Below, one piece after another: positions 38,761 through 45,949 of a DNA stretch of 64,000 nucleotides (within the stretch, counting starts at the first letter, position 1; each line of letters begins with the position of its first letter). This DNA is from Cantharellus purpuraceus (lineage: Eukaryota; Basidiomycota; Agaricomycetes; Cantharellales; Hydnaceae), in the NCBI GenBank assembly GCA_025174535.1, contig JALBUN010000020.1:62001-126000 (forward strand), given 5' to 3'. The notes under the pieces were generated by a model. The model was not told the DNA's origin and did not search any database. It saw only the letters and a list, made by a program, of their open reading frames with translations. A program made the position numbers and the translations under genes.

Positions 38761-39124
38761 GACACAGTTTGTCACTGCCACGTTAACACTTCTACAACCG
38801 TTGCAGACAGTAAACTAATTAGTGGGAAGAACTAACTCTGATTCTTTACATGAGAGTTTATAGTAAACGGACAATATTTGATTGTTCTGTGCGTGGTATA
38901 CTTAATCTTCGACGGCGGTGTCTTAGTTCGTGCTGTAGTTGCTGTATGGCTTCATCGCTGAGACTTACCGTGCAGAAACGCTCGACAGACGATCGATGAT
39001 CGCACATGCATTTTAAAGATTATCTTTATATACCTTGCAATGGGTCCCATTAAAACTAGTGTGAAAAGTCAAGAATATCATCATTTCGCATATCCTATTT
39101 CTCATGGTGCCTCAAGGCAGCAAG
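38761..39124. other. spacer between retroelement and LodA-like gene
   Basis: About 360 bp; the junction between transposon remains and host sequence lies near 38760. No gene or repeat recognised. Confidence 0.5.
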
Positions 39125-41281
39125 TCAAGATGGTGGGATCAGTTGACGCTCGCTCTCCATCCACTTGAAGCTAGTTGGAGGAGTCGTATCCTTGACGACG
39201 AACCCTAACCTGCTCCAATACTTGACCATGTCGGTACTCCCAGGGAATGAGCTCAAATCTGAAACAAAACATGAATCACTTATCACCTTCACCCGATTGA
39301 GGTCACTTACCGTTAGGCGTCACACGAAGACCTCGCACCCATGGCGTACGCACTTCGTCAGAGTCGACAGTGACGACATCGTCAGGGCGAGCACTCGGCC
39401 ACCTTAAACACAAATAAGTAAAAGTCCACGCGATCAACTTCTCGGACGTCCTACCAGTGCAAATTGCACAAGGAGAAGTTACTCTGCCACGGCAAACTCA
39501 ACCTAGCTGTCAAATCTCCAGGTTGGAGGGCAGGAGTCCCGTTGCGACCTGCATAATTGAACCTGAAAGGCGGGTTGATGGGATTCGCCCCTGTGTCGTA
39601 CACAAAAGCCTCCTTTGCAATCCAATATATCTCGATGCCAGGATACATCTGTGTTCCGGTCGTTTGTTCTAGAGCAGCGCGGGTCAGAAGTTCAGGGTGG
39701 GCTCTAACATCGTCCGGGAGAGTCCCCACACTCGCTGAACCCGTCACGAAATTGCCATCTGCCCATTTTTTGAAGCGGTCGTATTGAAGCTTCGTCACCG
39801 ATCCATATCGTAAGAAAGGTCTTTTGTAAGCTTGGGGGTCGGTGTCCCCAGCTTCAACTGCATCGCCTACTCAAGTAGATCAGCCGAAAAGATCATATTA
39901 AAAGATTAAGGTGCTGAACCATACCATCATCACCAGAGAGACGAGGCATGTATTTGACATTGGCCTGCTGTGGGTTTCCAGGCTCCCTGAGTTTGTTAAA
40001 TATGTTCTGGCGGAGGCCATGATTAGGGTCGTTTGCGCCTGCCCCCGCCGGTGGAGTTGAGAGTCTGGCTTCGCTGGGGAGAAAGTTTCCAGTCCCGTTG
40101 GGTCCTATCCGATTTCGGTAACGAGTGTCCGAGATTTATAAGAAAATATATCTACCGTGACCATCGCTTGCTTTACTATTGACCCAGGCCATCGCACAAC
40201 TCCTGAGAAAAACAGGCCAGATATCTCTGTAAAATTGAGTATCACTGGGGATACCGGTGTGCCCTGCCCCCTGGTAGATATCCTCCATGACGTCGTAGAG
40301 TGTCGTGGTATCATTGATGCCCCAGGCAAATTTCGGTGGCGAACTGATTACAGTAGCCTTGTGTGCCGCCGTTTGAGACCTGTTCCCGTCTGTAAATATT
40401 GCACAATAATGAGGGATTAATACAACCCACCATCCATCCTTTTCGACCCTCACGTCCACCCAACCATCGCAGACATCGTCGTACCAGTTCAGGTTGTCGA
40501 ATTCGGAAAGGATATCGGGCTGCGTAGAGACACCATTGTCGTCGACGTATCCTGCATACCCGTTCCCTCCTCGGAATATTAGACGACCAGACTGTTGTTC
40601 GATGGAAATGGAACCGAGCAGAACTGTCTTCTTTTCCAAAAATTTTCCCTCGAGTTTTTTCACAGTCGTTTCGGTCGAGTTGATATCGGTCTGACTAGGG
40701 GTGATCTTGAGCTTCTCGCGGTCCTTGAAGTTGAAGGAATCATTTTGTTGATGAGCTCTATGAGATTGTGCAAAGCCGCACTAAGCCTCAAAGCTACCCT
40801 TACCTCAGGCCGAACATCTGGATTACGGAGTTCCGTGGTCTCGTCTCTGAACCTCCCTAATGAAAGGAAAGCTTTAATGAGGCGGAACATCTAAGGCTTC
40901 AAAAAGATGTACCTCTGAACTGGAGCGCAGCTGCCTTCGTATTGGCCACATTGACCGTCCAGGTGAGTTTGTACCCATCCGCCTTTGTGAGTTCTTTGAT
41001 GCATATGCCATCCTTGTCAAATCCGTAGGCTCGAAATTTCACGGCCTTACGACCACTATCAGCGGGCAATAATCAAGAACGAATTAAAGGCAAACCTGCT
41101 GCTTAATTTGACCATTGGGGAGTCGGAATGCGGTAATGGGGTTACCATCAGATCCTACTGGGTAACCTGTCTGTCCAGGAACTTCAGGAGCAAAGAAGTA
41201 CTCCGAGTCGATTGCCGCATCGCCTAAACGCGCAATGCCAATTGGAGGGAAAATTTCCACAATGTCGATGTTAGAAGGCAT
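39125..41281 (-). CDS. LodA/GoxA-like amino-acid oxidase homologue (568 aa)
   Basis: Nine exons on the minus strand (41096-41281, 40913-41045, 40804-40856, 40431-40723, 40156-40379, 39925-40104, 39455-39866, 39311-39402, 39125-39258) sum to 569 codons, introns 50-80 bp; one 51-bp intron is in-frame and could be retained. The product follows the LodA family (L-lysine 6-oxidase, glycine oxidase GoxA; cysteine tryptophylquinone enzymes): N-terminal IFPPIGIARLGDA, QQAVKFRAYGFDKDG, LIFRGGNGYAGYVDD, ISSPPKFAWGINDTTTLYDV, NVKYMPRLSGDDGD, LTRAALEQTTGTQMYPGIE, LSLPWQSNFSLC and HWWPSARPDD. The last block holds the cofactor Trp region; the usual Cys in L-x-x-C-x-G-G-x-F-x-P-G-I-E is Thr here. Shorter than bacterial LodA (about 700 aa). 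Divergent to the ferritin-like and LodB-like genes. Confidence 0.9.
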
Positions 41282-41504
41282 GATAGAGTACGAGCGGGTG
41301 AGAAGAAATAGTTTGGGGAAGGAGAAGGGGCAAGGGCGGTATATGAGCGATCAATCGATCCAAGAATGAGCCAGATTAACGGGTAGTAGGTCACGAGTTT
41401 ATCAGCATGAGTAGCTTGCAGCATGGAGCTGATAACTGTCAACTGTAGTCCGATGAATGCGACTTAACGTAGCAAGTGCACGTGCCGCGCCAAGTTGGCA
41501 TAGC

Positions 41505-41532
41505 CTTCCATTGCCTCGACGTGATCACATAC
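41505..41532 (+). promoter_or_regulatory. repeated motif, LodA-proximal copy
   Basis: CATTGCCTCGA followed by (C)GTGATCACATAC, about 225 bp upstream of the LodA-like start. TGATCA in the middle is palindromic. The same block recurs at 42442-42469, and both are followed within about 70 bp by GT(A/G)ACTTCCAA. Shared control is inferred. Confidence 0.55.
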
Positions 41533-42441
41533 AAAGAACAGCCAAGCCGTATAGAGATGGGAGGAAAGTTATGCCACGGTAACTTCCAACTTGTTCTACC
41601 ACCGGCGCTGCAGTGTTGCCGCCTCAGCCTCCCACAAACGAACTCGCGAGAAGACTAACATTGAATTCAACTAGTTTTCATAATTGAGATGTGATGTGCC
41701 AGGGCAGTGGACCTGTGGAGAACAAAGAGCAAAATATAAATACAATAAAAACAGAGCAGGGAAACTAGACCATTGTGGTTTTAGTTGTAACTGCATGAAG
41801 TGAAGCCTTGATTGGCACTCCAGCAACTCTGCAACTTGTGATTACCGTCTTGAAGCTGCCAAATCTGTATGCAAGGGAAAGTATATAATTCTAAAGAGCA
41901 ATTCTAAACAAGCATTCAAATCCATTTTGCACTCTGTCAGATGATTCTGCTTGAACGAAGCCCGATTTTAACGGAGTGTCGTAACCGTGCCATTCTTGAT
42001 GACATCTCTATACTGTCATGGAAAGCTTCTCAACGAGAAGTGCAAAGTCTTGCCTTAACTCGATTAGGAGGACATGTCGTTCTTCGTATGCGATTGAGGC
42101 ATTTTGCAAAATGATCAAGCGGTATCTCAATACCGATCATAAAACTTGGCCAAATTGAATTTCCATTGACGATTTGCTTTACTAGCAATCATGTCTGCGC
42201 TTGGCACCCAGTGAGCGAGTATTCGTCATGCTTCAGCGCTTCAGCCTCTGAATGGTTACAAGAAGCGGGATGTGAGGATCACAAAGTGTGAGTTGTGGGC
42301 AACATGCCTCTTCTTCACGGTGTTGTCTGTAGCCTTCTGTCGCTTCGACGGTATTAGCGCTTAGCATTCGGTTAATAACTTCAAACCTATTTCTCTGCAA
42401 AGCTCCATTGATTAACGGACGTTTCGGAGATTCCCTATAAC

Positions 42442-42469
42442 CTTTCATTGCCTCGAGGTGATCACATAC
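42442..42469 (+). promoter_or_regulatory. repeated motif, ferritin-like-proximal copy
   Basis: CATTGCCTCGA followed by (G)GTGATCACATAC, about 280 bp upstream of the ferritin-like start. It differs from the copy at 41505 by one or two bases over 28. Confidence 0.55.
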
Positions 42470-42749
42470 GGAAGGCAATGTCGTAATTTATGTCAGGGTG
42501 ACTTCCAAACTTCCTGCCCTGTCAACCCCATTCACCAATGAATTATGGATTGACATGACTTAGACCAAGCTTTTGGGACAATGCATGCGATGCTCCGCCA
42601 TTTGTTCCGTGAAGTGCAGCCTACCAAGTGAGTACCACCGACTGGTAAGGGTCAGTTCCGGAAGGTTTATATCACATCGCGACCCTTGAGGTCAAAACGC
42701 AAGATTCCCGTGCACTCTCCTTTGCATTATTCTCATCAACCAACAACTC

Positions 42750-44097
42750 ATGACTCGTATCAAAGTGATACCTGCGCCTGTGCGCGTCGACGAGTGGACA
42801 AAGCCACTGCTAATCGAGCGCTTGAAGATAGGAATGCAATTTGAACTGAGCACCATTCCGCTCTACTTGTACGCCTACTACAGCATAAACGTCGAAGCCA
42901 GCATCCCTGAACACGCGAAGCTCGCCGGTGCCAATGCCCGTTTCGCAATTTTGGGTTTGTTATTTATTTATTCATCATTTATATCTCCCTACGAACCTCT
43001 GCAGGTGTGGTCCAACAGGAGATGCTTCACCTTACCTTGATGGGCAATCTTCTTCGTGCTGTGGACGAAACACCAACCCTCTACAGGGAGAGTTTCATAC
43101 CGGTTTATCCCGACACGGTTCTGTCTAGTAATGTACCAATGAGTTTGATAAGGGCCGGGAGGGAGAGTTTTGGGAATTTTATAAAGGTGTTTATATCACG
43201 TAGATGTGGTTTTCGTCGATCTCACTTGAGGCACTTTAGATTGAAGCCCCATATCATCCTCCTCCTCCTACCCCTAAAAGAGGTGCACTGCCAGACGAAC
43301 ACAGTCTTGGAGAATTCTACACAAATTTAGCACAAGGTGAGTGTGCTCATCCCTTCCTCTCTTCTTTATCTATTCATCTAGTATTGGTAGGCATCGAAAT
43401 AGTCAGTGAGATGGAGAAAGATCTATTCAAAGATCCCCATCTCGATCTACAGTTCGGTGGCCTTATGTTCAACAAAGACATACAGATCCAAGACAAAGAT
43501 ACTGCCCTCAAAGCCATCGAACTCATCACCGAGCAAGGAGAAGGAGGGACCAGCACCCCGGAGTCACACTACAACATTTTCGTTGATCTTTATCACCGCC
43601 AACAGAGTTGGGCCTGCTACAACGTCGTCAAGGATCCTAAGTCAGTTGAATACCCCGATGGCGCCGTCAAAGAGGTAGGATGTAGCCTCAATTCTTTGCA
43701 ACTTTGATTCCAACTCATATGGTTATACTAGCTCGCCCTCGCTTTTAATGCGTCCTACTGCTATCTTCTCCTTACCATTGAGAAGGTCTGGGATGTCTCT
43801 GACACAGTACATCGCAGGCATTTGACCAAGAATGTCCATTTGATCATGATGGCGGTCACCACACCACTCGCCAGCCTACTCGTCCAACAAAAAATCGATT
43901 TGGAAGGACACACAAACGCTGGTCCATGCTTTGAATATTATCCGTCGATGGGCACGGGGACAGATCTTGAAAATCTGCACCAAGCAATCAAAGACAAGTT
44001 GACGGCGGCTAGTGAGAAAGACCCGAGTTTGAATGATCGCATCGCCCCTCTGTTATATACAGTCAATAGAGTTGCACCGTACCAACAGGGGAAGTAA
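42750..44097 (+). CDS. ferritin-like protein, iminophenylpyruvate dimer synthase type (380 aa)
   Basis: Five exons (42750-42954, 43005-43186, 43240-43336, 43382-43674, 43732-44097) sum to 381 codons. The N-terminal 140 residues match the ferritin-like domain found in VioB/RebD-type iminophenylpyruvate dimer synthases (PF12902): IGMQFELSTIPLYLYAYYSI, then VVQQEMLHLTLMGNLL, with E and ExxH metal-ligand candidates. A Pro-rich linker (PYHPPPPTPKRG) follows, then helices with HSLGEFYTNLAQVLVGIE and SHYNIFVDLYHRQQ. It should bind a di-metal site and act in oxidation chemistry; whether it couples imines as in bisindole pathways is unknown. The LodB-like gene follows after only 200 bp on the same strand; LodA-like is divergent upstream. 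Confidence 0.88.
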
Positions 44098-44296
44098 CAC
44101 TGTCCTTAGTCCTCAACTGTATAGCGTACATCTTGTGGTTCGCACAATACTTGATATAGTTTTCACTTTGAATCCATGTACATGGACCAGGGTGTGAATT
44201 CCTTGACTTCTGAATTTCATCTGAGCGTGATTTTGGTGGCTCTACCAGTGCACTTGTGCACGTGTACTGTCCTTATCTTGAGTCTTGTTTCTAACC

Positions 44297-45621
44297 ATGA
44301 TATACGATGGTGAGCTCCATCTGACAAAACAATGTTCCGGCACCCTTGAACCGTTTTTTTCAGTTGTCATTGTTGGAGGCGGCCCTGCTGGATGTGCGGT
44401 AGCATTATCTCTTGTTCGTTCAAATCCTGACGCTTCATTCCTACTACTGGATGATGCCGATCCTGCATTCTTCAAGGTAGTTAGATGATCTAGTATTTGT
44501 TTCCCGCAGCCTCCATGCTCACTGCTGATTTTCCAGGTGGGCGAGTCGTTACCGGCAATGGCAACTCGCACTCTGAACTATCTCTCCGGCACACTTTCAA
44601 GTTGTCTGTTGCAAGATACCCAACTAGGAAAGCATTCTCGATGTACTGGAAATGCGTCAGCTTGGACTTCGCAAGATATTCACGAACAGTACGCCATTAT
44701 GAATCCTTATGGTATGGGCTGGCATCTCCACCGCGCCCTCTTCGATGAGACCGTTCGAGAAACGGTAAGGGCTCAATGTCAGAAGGGAGACGAGGGTTCT
44801 GCCCCATCTTCGGTGGAAAGAGCGCGATTTCGTTCCGTGGAAAAGGAGGAGGTTACATGGCGTGTACATTGCGAGGAGCTTGCGTCCGGCAATATGAAGT
44901 ATTACCGTGCCAAATGGATAGTTGACGCGACGGGTAGGAAGGCATCACTTGCGCGAAAGGTACCAAGTTCCACTGTTCTTGAGAGGCCCGGGGTTTAATA
45001 ATGATACAGCTAGGCGCAGAAACAGTCCGAACCGATTCGCTCCTTGCCTTTTATTCACTCTTCAGCTCACTTGGAGAAGACACAGACAATAGGACGTTGA
45101 TCGAAGCAACCCAGTCTGGTTGGTGGTACACCTCTCGACTTCCAAACGGTACACGTGTCGTCGTCTACCACACTGATGACGATGATCCACCCTCCAAGCT
45201 GGCACGAAGACAGGAGGGGTTCTTCGATCTTCTGCACAATGATACGAAACACATTTCGCGGATTATTCTTGAATTTGACTACAACATTGTTCCGAATGCA
45301 CAATTTCCTCGTCGCACAGCGGCGGGGTCATCTTGCCTGCAACCAATTTGCGACGAAGCAAGTGGATGGTGTGCTGTCGGCGATGCTGCCATGGCATTCG
45401 ATCCTCTCTCATCGCAGGGCATCATAACCGCTCTTGGGCTGGGGTGCTTCATTGGCGATGAAATTGCCAAAAGGGTTAGCAAAAAGGATCGCTCAGAAGA
45501 ATTCCGTGACATTTCAGATTATTTTCAGGAGATTAGCGAAAAATATGGGAAGGAGAAGAAATATTTCTATGATTTGGTAGAGCAGTTTGATGGTGAATTC
45601 TGGAAAAGAAGGCAAAGGTGA
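44297..45621 (+). CDS. LodB-like FAD-dependent oxidoreductase (386 aa)
   Basis: Exons 44297-44309, 44364-44476, 44537-44959 and 45010-45621 sum to 387 codons. The first exon is only 13 bp; splicing it out gives MIYDVVIVGGGPAGC, a perfect Rossmann FAD-binding start, which fixes the gene start. Further motifs: KVGESLPA, the WIVDATGRKA block, and GDAAMAFDPLSSQGI, all typical of flavin halogenase-like and LodB/GoxB proteins. In the LodA/GoxA systems the LodB-type flavoprotein is needed to build the tryptophylquinone cofactor (established knowledge). Its place beside a LodA homologue supports that role over a halogenase, as no halogenase WxWxIP motif is seen. Confidence 0.88.
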
Positions 45622-45949
45622 ACTGTTGTTAGCTACCAAGAACTTGTAATGTTAGCACATTCTCAATATGCAACATGCAATGATCAGCCACACTGTGGGA
45701 AGTGGAGCCACTGAATTTCATATCTCAGTGGGTAGATCATTGAAACAGTACCCACTGAAAAATCTTAGGTGGATGAGATTTCAGTGGTATAATCACTTAA
45801 TGAATTTAAGTGGTTGTCTCACTGAAATTTCCTATGGGTGGGTCCTATGACTTTCCATACCTTATGCACTCAAAAACTCTCAGTGATTATCATTGGAATT
45901 ACTGTGGTTTTTCTGAAATCTAGCCATTTTTAATGTAAATGTAAGTGTG
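45622..45949. other. AT-rich spacer with TTCAGTGG hairpin cluster
   Basis: Between LodB-like and the second transposon pile. From 45708 to 45828 the motif CCACTGAA or its complement TTCAGTGG appears five times in alternating orientation, able to form nested hairpins. It may be a small inverted-repeat element remnant; no ends or target duplication could be set. Confidence 0.45.

What the first reader, a model, noticed from the sequence alone, without database searches (positions are those of the whole stretch)
39125..45621. LodA-like / ferritin-like / LodB-like three-gene cluster in a fungus
Seen: a LodA-family protein (minus), then divergently a PF12902-type ferritin-like protein and a LodB-type flavoprotein (plus), within 6.5 kb and with nothing else between. 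Known: LodA/GoxA enzymes make hydrogen peroxide from amino acids (LodA of Marinomonas is antimicrobial) and need the LodB-type flavoprotein to mature a tryptophylquinone. Inference: the ferritin-like protein, related to VioB/RebD imine-coupling enzymes, may act on the imine/aldehyde product or on peroxide, making this a small biosynthetic or defence locus. All three are intron-rich, so if it came from bacteria it is old. Retrotransposon piles lie on both sides.
Basis: partly seen in the sequence, partly recalled or inferred. Interest (0 to 1): 0.88.

Follow-up and report, generated by a model that had tools for sequence, protein, structure and literature searches.

The report
Fungal quinone-oxidase gene trio with ferritin-like partner
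A mushroom-type fungus carries a small gene trio that should build and run an unusual hydrogen-peroxide-making enzyme, and the same unexplained third partner also turns up beside, or fused to, this enzyme in some bacteria, which suggests an overlooked three-part system.

Summary
Observation confirmed: an intact LodA/GoxA-like gene (39125-41281, minus), a PF12902 ferritin-like gene (42750-44097) and a LodB/GoxB-type maturase gene (44297-45621). Three more intact copies of the trio lie in the genome, two of them perhaps alleles. The fungal arrangement is not new: Campillo-Brocal 2015 reported it for five fungal lodA genes. Beyond that paper: (1) the ferritin-like gene is a non-random LodA neighbour in bacteria (6 of 13 LodA loci in 297 genomes of the Acidobacteria phylum; 4 of 10 in 121 Streptomyces genomes), and in 5 of 343 Streptomyces genomes LodA's quinone half and a ferritin-like domain share one reading frame; (2) six putative di-metal ligands are invariant in 69 relatives; (3) the window LodA has Asn where 65 of 66 relatives have the cofactor-site Asp; (4) one locus is a divergence island between near-identical segments. 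Best reading: LodB matures LodA's quinone, LodA makes imine plus H2O2, and the ferritin-like protein uses one or both. That last step, and any defence role, are untested inference.

The parts
39125..41281 (-). LodA/GoxA-like quinoprotein gene, 568 aa; exons 41281-41096, 41045-40913, 40856-40804, 40723-40431, 40379-40156, 40104-39925, 39866-39455, 39402-39311, 39258-39125; LodA_N (aa 11-232) and LodA_C (aa 379-501)
   Evidence: model, intact, introns shared with paralogs; Pfam; solved LodA and GoxA structures
39466..39468 (-). Cys490, aligned with LodA Cys516 (sulphur side of the cysteine tryptophylquinone)
   Evidence: Cys in 66 of 66 of A4
39399..39401 (-). Trp495 (second W of WWP), aligned with LodA Trp581, the quinone tryptophan; position counted by hand on the 3weu alignment
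   Evidence: W in 64 of 66 of A4, gap in the other 2
39478..39480 (-). Asn486 in PWQS-N-F, where LodA Asp512 / GoxA Asp678 stands; Asp in the three other copies of this genome
41282..42749 (.). 1.47 kb divergent intergenic stretch between LodA and ferritin-like gene, possible shared promoter region (inference from position)
   Evidence: position only
42750..44097 (+). PF12902 ferritin-like gene, 377 aa; exons 42750-42954, 43005-43186, 43240-43336, 43391-43674, 43732-44097; putative di-metal ligands E32, E74, H77, E131, E212, H221
   Evidence: ligands invariant in A1 and A3; fold of homologue P0002
44297..45621 (+). LodB/GoxB-type FAD maturase gene, 386 aa; exons 44297-44309, 44364-44476, 44537-44959, 45010-45621
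   Evidence: QhpG structure 7ctq and FAD halogenases
38981..45684 (.). extent of homology to the other copies of the trio; beyond it only dispersed repeats matched in the stretches compared

Best explanation
The locus is a three-component oxidase unit. (1) The LodB-type flavoprotein uses FAD and O2 to finish a cysteine tryptophylquinone from Cys490 and Trp495 of the LodA-like protein. (2) The matured LodA-like enzyme oxidises an amine or amino acid to an imine and passes electrons to O2, giving H2O2. (3) The ferritin-like protein, a helical-bundle, probably di-metal protein related to VioB/RebD, acts directly on LodA's output, using the imine and/or H2O2, as VioB and RebD act after the amino-acid oxidases VioA and RebO (recalled). 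Shown here: the domains, the quinone residues, the maturase kinship, six conserved candidate ligands, the ferritin fold of a homologue's model, dN/dS below 1 between the window and the other copies, recurrence of the trio, and one-frame fusions of quinone domain and ferritin domain in bacteria. Inferred: the chemistry of steps 1 and 2 from the characterised family, and all of step 3. Substrate and product are unknown.
Against: Most bacterial LodA loci seen lack the ferritin-like gene: 76 of 79 had none in the DNA held, so it is not needed for LodA chemistry as such. The fungal LodA's nearest bacterial relatives in the tree (Burkholderiales) have none nearby, and the genome of L087 has none at all, so the association may have arisen more than once. 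The window's own LodA has N486. In two named fungi the listed LodA and ferritin-like hits are on different contigs (Suillus clintonianus, Rhizoctonia solani) and three have a ferritin-like hit without a listed LodA. In the six fused frames the last Glu is not in its alignment column in four, though a Glu lies two columns before it in all six. LodB pairs among C23, C48 and C39 have dN/dS above 1, from very few changes. No activity, metal or expression data.
Confidence: 0.45

Rival explanations
1. The ferritin-like protein is a third maturase: a di-metal oxygenase that puts the first oxygen on the LodA tryptophan (or makes the Cys-Trp bond), before the LodB flavoprotein finishes the quinone.
For: In LodA/GoxA the substrate of LodB/GoxB is already mono-hydroxylated Trp, a step thought autocatalytic and copper-dependent in LodA (passages of PMC7876137). 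The bacterial fusions tie the ferritin domain to the quinone half of LodA, with LodA_N as a separate frame. The window copy lacks the Asp thought to help that step.
Against: Most bacterial LodA loci seen have no such protein (76 of 79), and a once-per-molecule maturase fused to its target would be odd. The three other copies in this genome keep both the Asp and the ferritin-like gene.
Confidence: 0.25
2. The ferritin-like protein is a peroxide or metal scavenger that protects the cell from LodA's H2O2, in the way of Dps or rubrerythrin.
For: Ferritin fold with bacterioferritin/Dps matches and 4 Glu + 2 His candidate ligands; it sits beside a presumed H2O2 producer.
Against: Closest named family is VioB; fusion to the quinone domain fits a dedicated partner better; absent from most LodA loci seen.
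Confidence: 0.2
3. The window copy is a diverging, possibly quinone-impaired copy, while the C23, C48 and C39 copies do the work.
For: N486 in place of the conserved Asp (65 of 66 Asp); most divergent of the four copies (73-86% protein identity to the others); the zinc-finger frame carried beside the others was not found in the window.
Against: All three frames are intact and dN/dS is 0.30-0.50 against the other copies; Phanerochaete sordida P0051 also has Asn; a GoxA Asp678 mutation did not abolish CTQ.
Confidence: 0.3
4. The three genes are neighbours by accident.
For: Only the repeat-rich setting, which could shuffle genes.
Against: Same trio at the four distinct copies, in other fungi and in several bacteria.
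Confidence: 0.01

Closest known systems
Fungal lodA-like genes, group V of Campillo-Brocal et al. 2015 (PMC4417212; passages read)
   Same: Agaricomycete LodA-like gene, LodB-like gene in the opposite orientation, PF12902 gene close by or between them; best relatives are other fungal LodA proteins
   Different: The paper had 5 genes in 4 genomes; the passages read give the ferritin-like gene no role and mention it for fungi only. Here 40 named species appear, the genome has four distinct copies, and the same partner is found in bacteria
LodA/LodB of Marinomonas and GoxA/GoxB (CTQ oxidase plus flavoprotein maturase)
   Same: Both Pfam domains, Cys and Trp of CTQ, adjacent maturase gene
   Different: Below both NCBIfam equivalog cut-offs (GoxA 217 of 750, LodA 105 of 600), shorter, divergent genes, N486, and a ferritin-like partner
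QhpG peptidyl tryptophan dihydroxylase (PDB 7ctq)
   Same: Sequence kinship of the flavoprotein and role in building a tryptophylquinone
   Different: QhpG acts on unmodified Trp in a pre-crosslinked subunit; LodB/GoxB act on hydroxy-Trp
VioB / RebD (iminophenyl-pyruvate dimer synthase) with oxidases VioA / RebO (chemistry recalled)
   Same: PF12902 region matches VioB 602-821; oxidase-plus-partner logic
   Different: VioB is about 1000 aa (model length 1003); three long PF12902-bearing Streptomyces frames of that kind showed no LodA-like part; the partner oxidase is a flavoprotein (recalled), not a quinoprotein
Caulobacter ferritin-like protein CC_0557 (PDB 3hl1)
   Different: No function stated in its title; whether it lies beside LodA in Caulobacter was not tested

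Membership tests
LodA/GoxA CTQ oxidases | LodA_N and LodA_C domains over curated cut-offs | tested here: met
   156.8 and 84.6 bits
LodA/GoxA CTQ oxidases | Cys and Trp that form CTQ | tested here: met
   C490 and W495 aligned with LodA C516 and W581
LodA/GoxA CTQ oxidases | conserved cofactor-site Asp (LodA 512, GoxA 678) | tested here: not met
   N486 in the window copy; Asp in the other copies of the genome. The residue is not strictly needed in GoxA according to the passage
LodA/GoxA CTQ oxidases | LodB-type gene next to it | tested here: met
   44297-45621; GoxB 211 and LodB 190 bits
LodA/GoxA CTQ oxidases | amino-acid or amine oxidase activity with H2O2 | not testable with these tools
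   needs protein
LodA (lysine 6-oxidase) or GoxA (glycine oxidase) proper | NCBIfam equivalog cut-off | tested here: not met
   105 of 600 and 217 of 750: family member, not shown to be either enzyme
LodB/GoxB maturases | full-length match as best family, FAD-binding N-terminus | tested here: met
   GoxB model 2-358 of 358 (on the model with the spliced start)
LodB/GoxB maturases | NCBIfam equivalog cut-off of 400 | tested here: not met
   211 and 190 bits
PF12902 ferritin-like | Pfam cut-off and full model coverage | tested here: met
   144.6 bits, model 1-221 of 221
PF12902 ferritin-like | E, ExxH, E, E, H candidate di-metal ligands | tested here: met
   six positions invariant in 69 sequences and present in the window; metal binding itself not tested
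VioB/RebD dimer synthases | VioB equivalog cut-off of 1250 and full length of about 1000 aa | tested here: not met
   28.7 bits, 377 aa
VioB/RebD dimer synthases | coupling of imine products | not testable with these tools
   needs enzyme assay

The most novel reading that the evidence does not exclude
LodA/LodB plus a PF12902 ferritin-like protein is a distinct three-cofactor system (protein-derived quinone, flavin, di-metal) that occurs in Agaricomycetes and in at least three bacterial phyla (Actinomycetes; Acidobacteria and Cyanobacteria partly from MAGs). In its extreme form LodA is split: LodA_N is one protein, the quinone-bearing C half is fused to the ferritin domain, and a QhpG/GoxB-like flavoprotein follows. 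The ferritin domain is a catalytic partner, either a cofactor builder or a transformer of the oxidase product, and in this fungus one of the loci is kept in strongly diverged versions.
Probability: 0.5. Interest if true: 0.78.

Novelty: new variant of a known kind. Interest (0 to 1): 0.6.

Why it matters
CTQ oxidases of the LodA type are described with a flavoprotein maturase as their one partner (passages). A candidate di-metal partner that recurs beside LodA in fungi and several bacterial groups, and that is fused to the quinone-bearing half in some Streptomyces, makes two open questions directly testable: how the first oxygen gets onto the cofactor tryptophan, and what LodA-like enzymes outside marine bacteria make. 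The fungal branch would also be a eukaryotic tryptophylquinone enzyme; I recall none characterised, and I recognised none in the listings (open-access library only).

Tried and rejected
A first LodB model read through the first intron (404 aa, used) was replaced when the 13-nt first exon was seen. A first LodA model read through the 51-bp intron 40380-40430; indels among paralogs showed it to be an intron.

Idea that VioB/RebD N-terminal parts are hidden LodA domains: of three long PF12902-bearing Streptomyces frames the only LodA match was E 5.8 on one of them, with filters off; rejected at this sensitivity.

Idea that the trio entered fungi as one bacterial operon: the LodA sister group (Burkholderiales L087, L096, L097, L098, L102; support 0.99) has no ferritin-like gene in the DNA held, and the ferritin tree does not resolve a donor (support 0.03; 10 unnamed proteins fall inside the fungal clade). 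LodB points weakly to the same Burkholderiales plus L029 and L079 (0.65-0.81). Left open.

The Mycena maculata protein P0071 (LodA plus ferritin-like in one protein) may be two merged gene models and is not used as proof of fusion. The fifth LodA match (C39:63398) lies in a 6.6 kb perfect inverted repeat at a contig end and is not counted as a copy. The genome could not be named. A link of Caulobacter LodA and CC_0557 was not tested. In Foldseek only the two 3hl1 chains had E below 0.001; the wider ferritin-fold matches come from the second-look aligner.

Papers: PMC4417212, PMC4699246, PMC7876137, PMC9499651 and PMC7089950 were seen as passages only; the last two bore nothing on the question. 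All others were seen only as search listings.

Full report
1. What is in the window. The genome is a 40.15 Mb, 50-contig assembly; the window is contig C20:62001-126000. That it is an Agaricomycete is inferred from its LodA relatives and its introns. Splicing by hand, checked against paralogs, gives three intact genes. LodA-like: minus, 41281-39125, 9 exons, 568 aa. Ferritin-like: plus, 42750-44097, 5 exons, 377 aa. LodB-like: plus, 44297-45621, 4 exons, 386 aa, with a first exon of 13 nt that supplies the FAD-binding start. Introns are 50-80 bp. The homology shared with the other copies runs from 38981 to 45684; outside it only dispersed repeats matched in the stretches compared.

2. Families. 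LodA_N 156.8 and LodA_C 84.6 bits, PF12902 144.6 bits over its whole model. NCBIfam: GoxA 217 and LodA 105 bits for the oxidase; GoxB 211, LodB 190 and QhpG 115 bits for the flavoprotein; VioB 28.7 bits for the ferritin-like protein. All of these are below the equivalog cut-offs, so the oxidase is a LodA/GoxA-family member of unknown substrate. By sequence the solved relatives are GoxA 6ufq/6byw and LodA 2ymw/3weu, 3hl1 and QhpG 7ctq plus FAD halogenases.

3. Quinone residues. Cys490 aligns with LodA Cys516 and Trp495 with Trp581 (counted by hand on 3weu). Cys is in 66 of 66 and this Trp in 64 of 66 sequences of A4, gaps in 2 (A4 holds 66 of the 120 proteins listed). The site Asp is present in 65 of 66 (Asn in P0051, Phanerochaete sordida). 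The window LodA has Asn (N486); the C23, C48 and C39 copies have Asp. PDB 6ufq also has Asn at this position of GoxA. The passage read in PMC7876137 says the Asp is thought to take part in the first, copper-dependent hydroxylation in LodA, but that mutating Asp678 of GoxA did not abolish CTQ. So N486 is a warning, not proof of loss.

5. Copies in this genome. LodA_C, PF12902 and LodB each match at C20, C23, C48 and C39. Order, orientation and all introns are the same, and all frames are open. Pairwise dN/dS (no significance test): LodA 0.30-0.45 and ferritin-like 0.23-0.62 over six pairs each; LodB 0.30-0.32 for the window against the three others; the three LodB pairs among C23, C48 and C39 are too similar to judge (dS 0.007, ratios 1.2-1.5). 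C39:1-44109 is colinear with the reversed start of C48 at 97.5-99.3%, so these two may be alleles; the number of loci is therefore at least three. In 500-bp bins the C48/C39 flanks are 99-100% identical but the cassette falls to 88-99%, lowest over LodA. LodA of C39 is closer to C23 (94.5% protein identity) than to C48 (89.5%). A C2H2 zinc-finger frame lies on the LodA side of the C23, C48 and C39 cassettes and was not found in the window.

6. Other fungi. LodA and ferritin-like hits share one contig length, hence probably one contig, in Amanita inopinata, Suillus ampliporus, Serendipita vermifera, Hygrophoropsis aurantiaca and Hydnomerulius pinastri: 5 of the 10 named fungal species with a ferritin-like hit (the latter capped at 120 of 497). 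In Suillus clintonianus and Rhizoctonia solani the listed hits are on different contigs; for Auricularia subglabra, Mycena epipterygia and Piloderma croceum no LodA was listed. Mycena maculata P0071 has both in one annotated protein, possibly a merged model. In the LodA tree all 62 tips taken as fungal (58 hits by list position, some unnamed, P0072 left out beforehand, plus 4 copies from this genome) form one clade, support 1.0, sister to Burkholderiales L087, L096, L097, L098 and L102 at 0.99 (205 of 206 sequences kept). The window groups with the two Amanita proteins P0017 and P0018 in the LodA tree and with P0001 and Amanita P0002 in the ferritin tree.

7. Prior report. Campillo-Brocal et al. 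2015 (PMC4417212, passages): five fungal lodA-like genes in Agaricomycetes, lodB-like gene in the opposite orientation, a PF12902 gene close by or between, horizontal transfer suggested.

8. Bacteria. Of 79 LodA loci from the genome scan (best 80 of 407 relatives), 65 have a LodB-type frame and 3 a ferritin-like frame (L085, L092, L104) in the DNA held. In the genomes of L085 and L104 that is the only PF12902 match; in that of L092 it is one of two; the genome of L087, from the LodA sister group, has none. Surveys by family: in 121 Streptomyces genomes, drawn around that of L092, 9 have LodA_C (10 loci, counting the two fragments of G095 as one) and 45 have PF12902; in 4 of the 10 loci a PF12902 match lies within 2 kb (G001, G029, G059, G103), and in G029, G059 and G103 it is in the same frame as LodA_C. 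In 297 genomes of the phylum of L085 (titled Acidobacteria) 9 have LodA_C (13 loci) and 6 of the 13 have PF12902 within 5.2 kb (G002, G454, G472 twice, G499, G633); 7 do not. G001 and G002 are the centres and were known to have the pair beforehand: without them 3 of 9 and 5 of 12. Dropping also LodA_C matches under the Pfam cut-off: 2 of 8 and 4 of 10. Rough binomial chance runs from 4e-11 to 1e-5 for Streptomyces and 3e-13 to 7e-9 for the other phylum (gene densities are rounded-up guesses).

9. Split and fused forms. Loci fetched because they matched, hence not a sample, show: Fer-LodA-LodB in one direction (L092, L161, L163; L104 with a 2.5 kb gap before LodA); Fer-LodA without a LodB-type frame in 21.5 kb (L085); Fer-LodA_N-LodA_C-LodB with LodA in two frames (L162, L165); LodA_N, then LodA_C fused to the ferritin domain, then a weakly LodB-like flavoprotein (38-55 bits; L131, L132, L133, L166, L167; L164 is similar, 58 bits, with an additional separate ferritin-like gene); the split pair plus LodB without a ferritin-like frame in the DNA held (L168, L169). 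Full-length fusion matches: 5 of 343 Streptomyces genomes, 58-100% identity to the query, which is one of the five, and 1 of 297 in the Acidobacteria phylum at 36%. The flavoprotein beside the fusion in L131 is QhpG-like (62 bits, cut-off 240). The fused quinone half keeps a PWQxDFxxC...W motif in the frames read by eye. In the six fused ferritin halves five of the six ligand columns hold the expected residue; at E212 the column holds Glu in two, with a Glu two columns before it in all six.

10. Reading. A partner gene that recurs beside LodA in fungi and several bacterial groups, and is fused to the quinone half in some, very probably works with LodA. What it does is not shown. I favour use of LodA's imine and/or H2O2, because its kin (VioB/RebD) act after amino-acid oxidases (recalled); a role in building CTQ is the sharper alternative. 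That most LodA loci seen lack it fits a product-side partner slightly better. The proteins start without an obvious signal peptide (hydropathy check only), so an intracellular role or wound-released defence is as likely as a secreted antimicrobial.

11. Limits. No fungal contig collection with gene context was available, so fungal neighbourhoods beyond this genome rest on contig lengths, locus tags and the 2015 paper. Trees are FastTree with local supports and midpoint root. The paper library is open-access only.

Noticed in passing
C48:19.0-28.5 kb against C39:about 16-25.5 kb (L023, L024): Two otherwise 99-100% identical segments differ by 1-12% over the trio cassette, most over LodA: an island of divergence that suggests balanced polymorphism or conversion from an unsampled copy.
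   Followed up: partly
L022:304-960 minus; C48 about 19.0 kb; C39 about 25.1 kb: A two-finger C2H2 zinc-finger frame next to LodA in the C23, C48 and C39 cassettes, not found in the window; possibly a local regulator.
   Followed up: partly
C39:19343-25971 and 60046-66674: A 6,629-bp perfect inverted repeat that ends at the contig end and carries a second LodA; assembly artefact or terminal inverted duplication.
   Followed up: no
L131:5201-7135, L132:6037-8433, L133:5781-7799, L166:5927-8794, L167:5185-8547, L164:10713-13217: Bacterial reading frames that join the LodA quinone domain to a ferritin-like domain, beside a separate LodA_N-like frame and a weakly LodB/QhpG-like flavoprotein.
   Followed up: partly
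L085:8668-11539: Acidobacterial ferritin-like and LodA genes 1 bp apart with no LodB-type frame found in 21.5 kb.
   Followed up: partly
LodB of C23, C48 and C39: LodB is almost identical among these copies (dS 0.007) while LodA beside it differs at dS 0.09-0.18, a mosaic that points to gene conversion.
   Followed up: no
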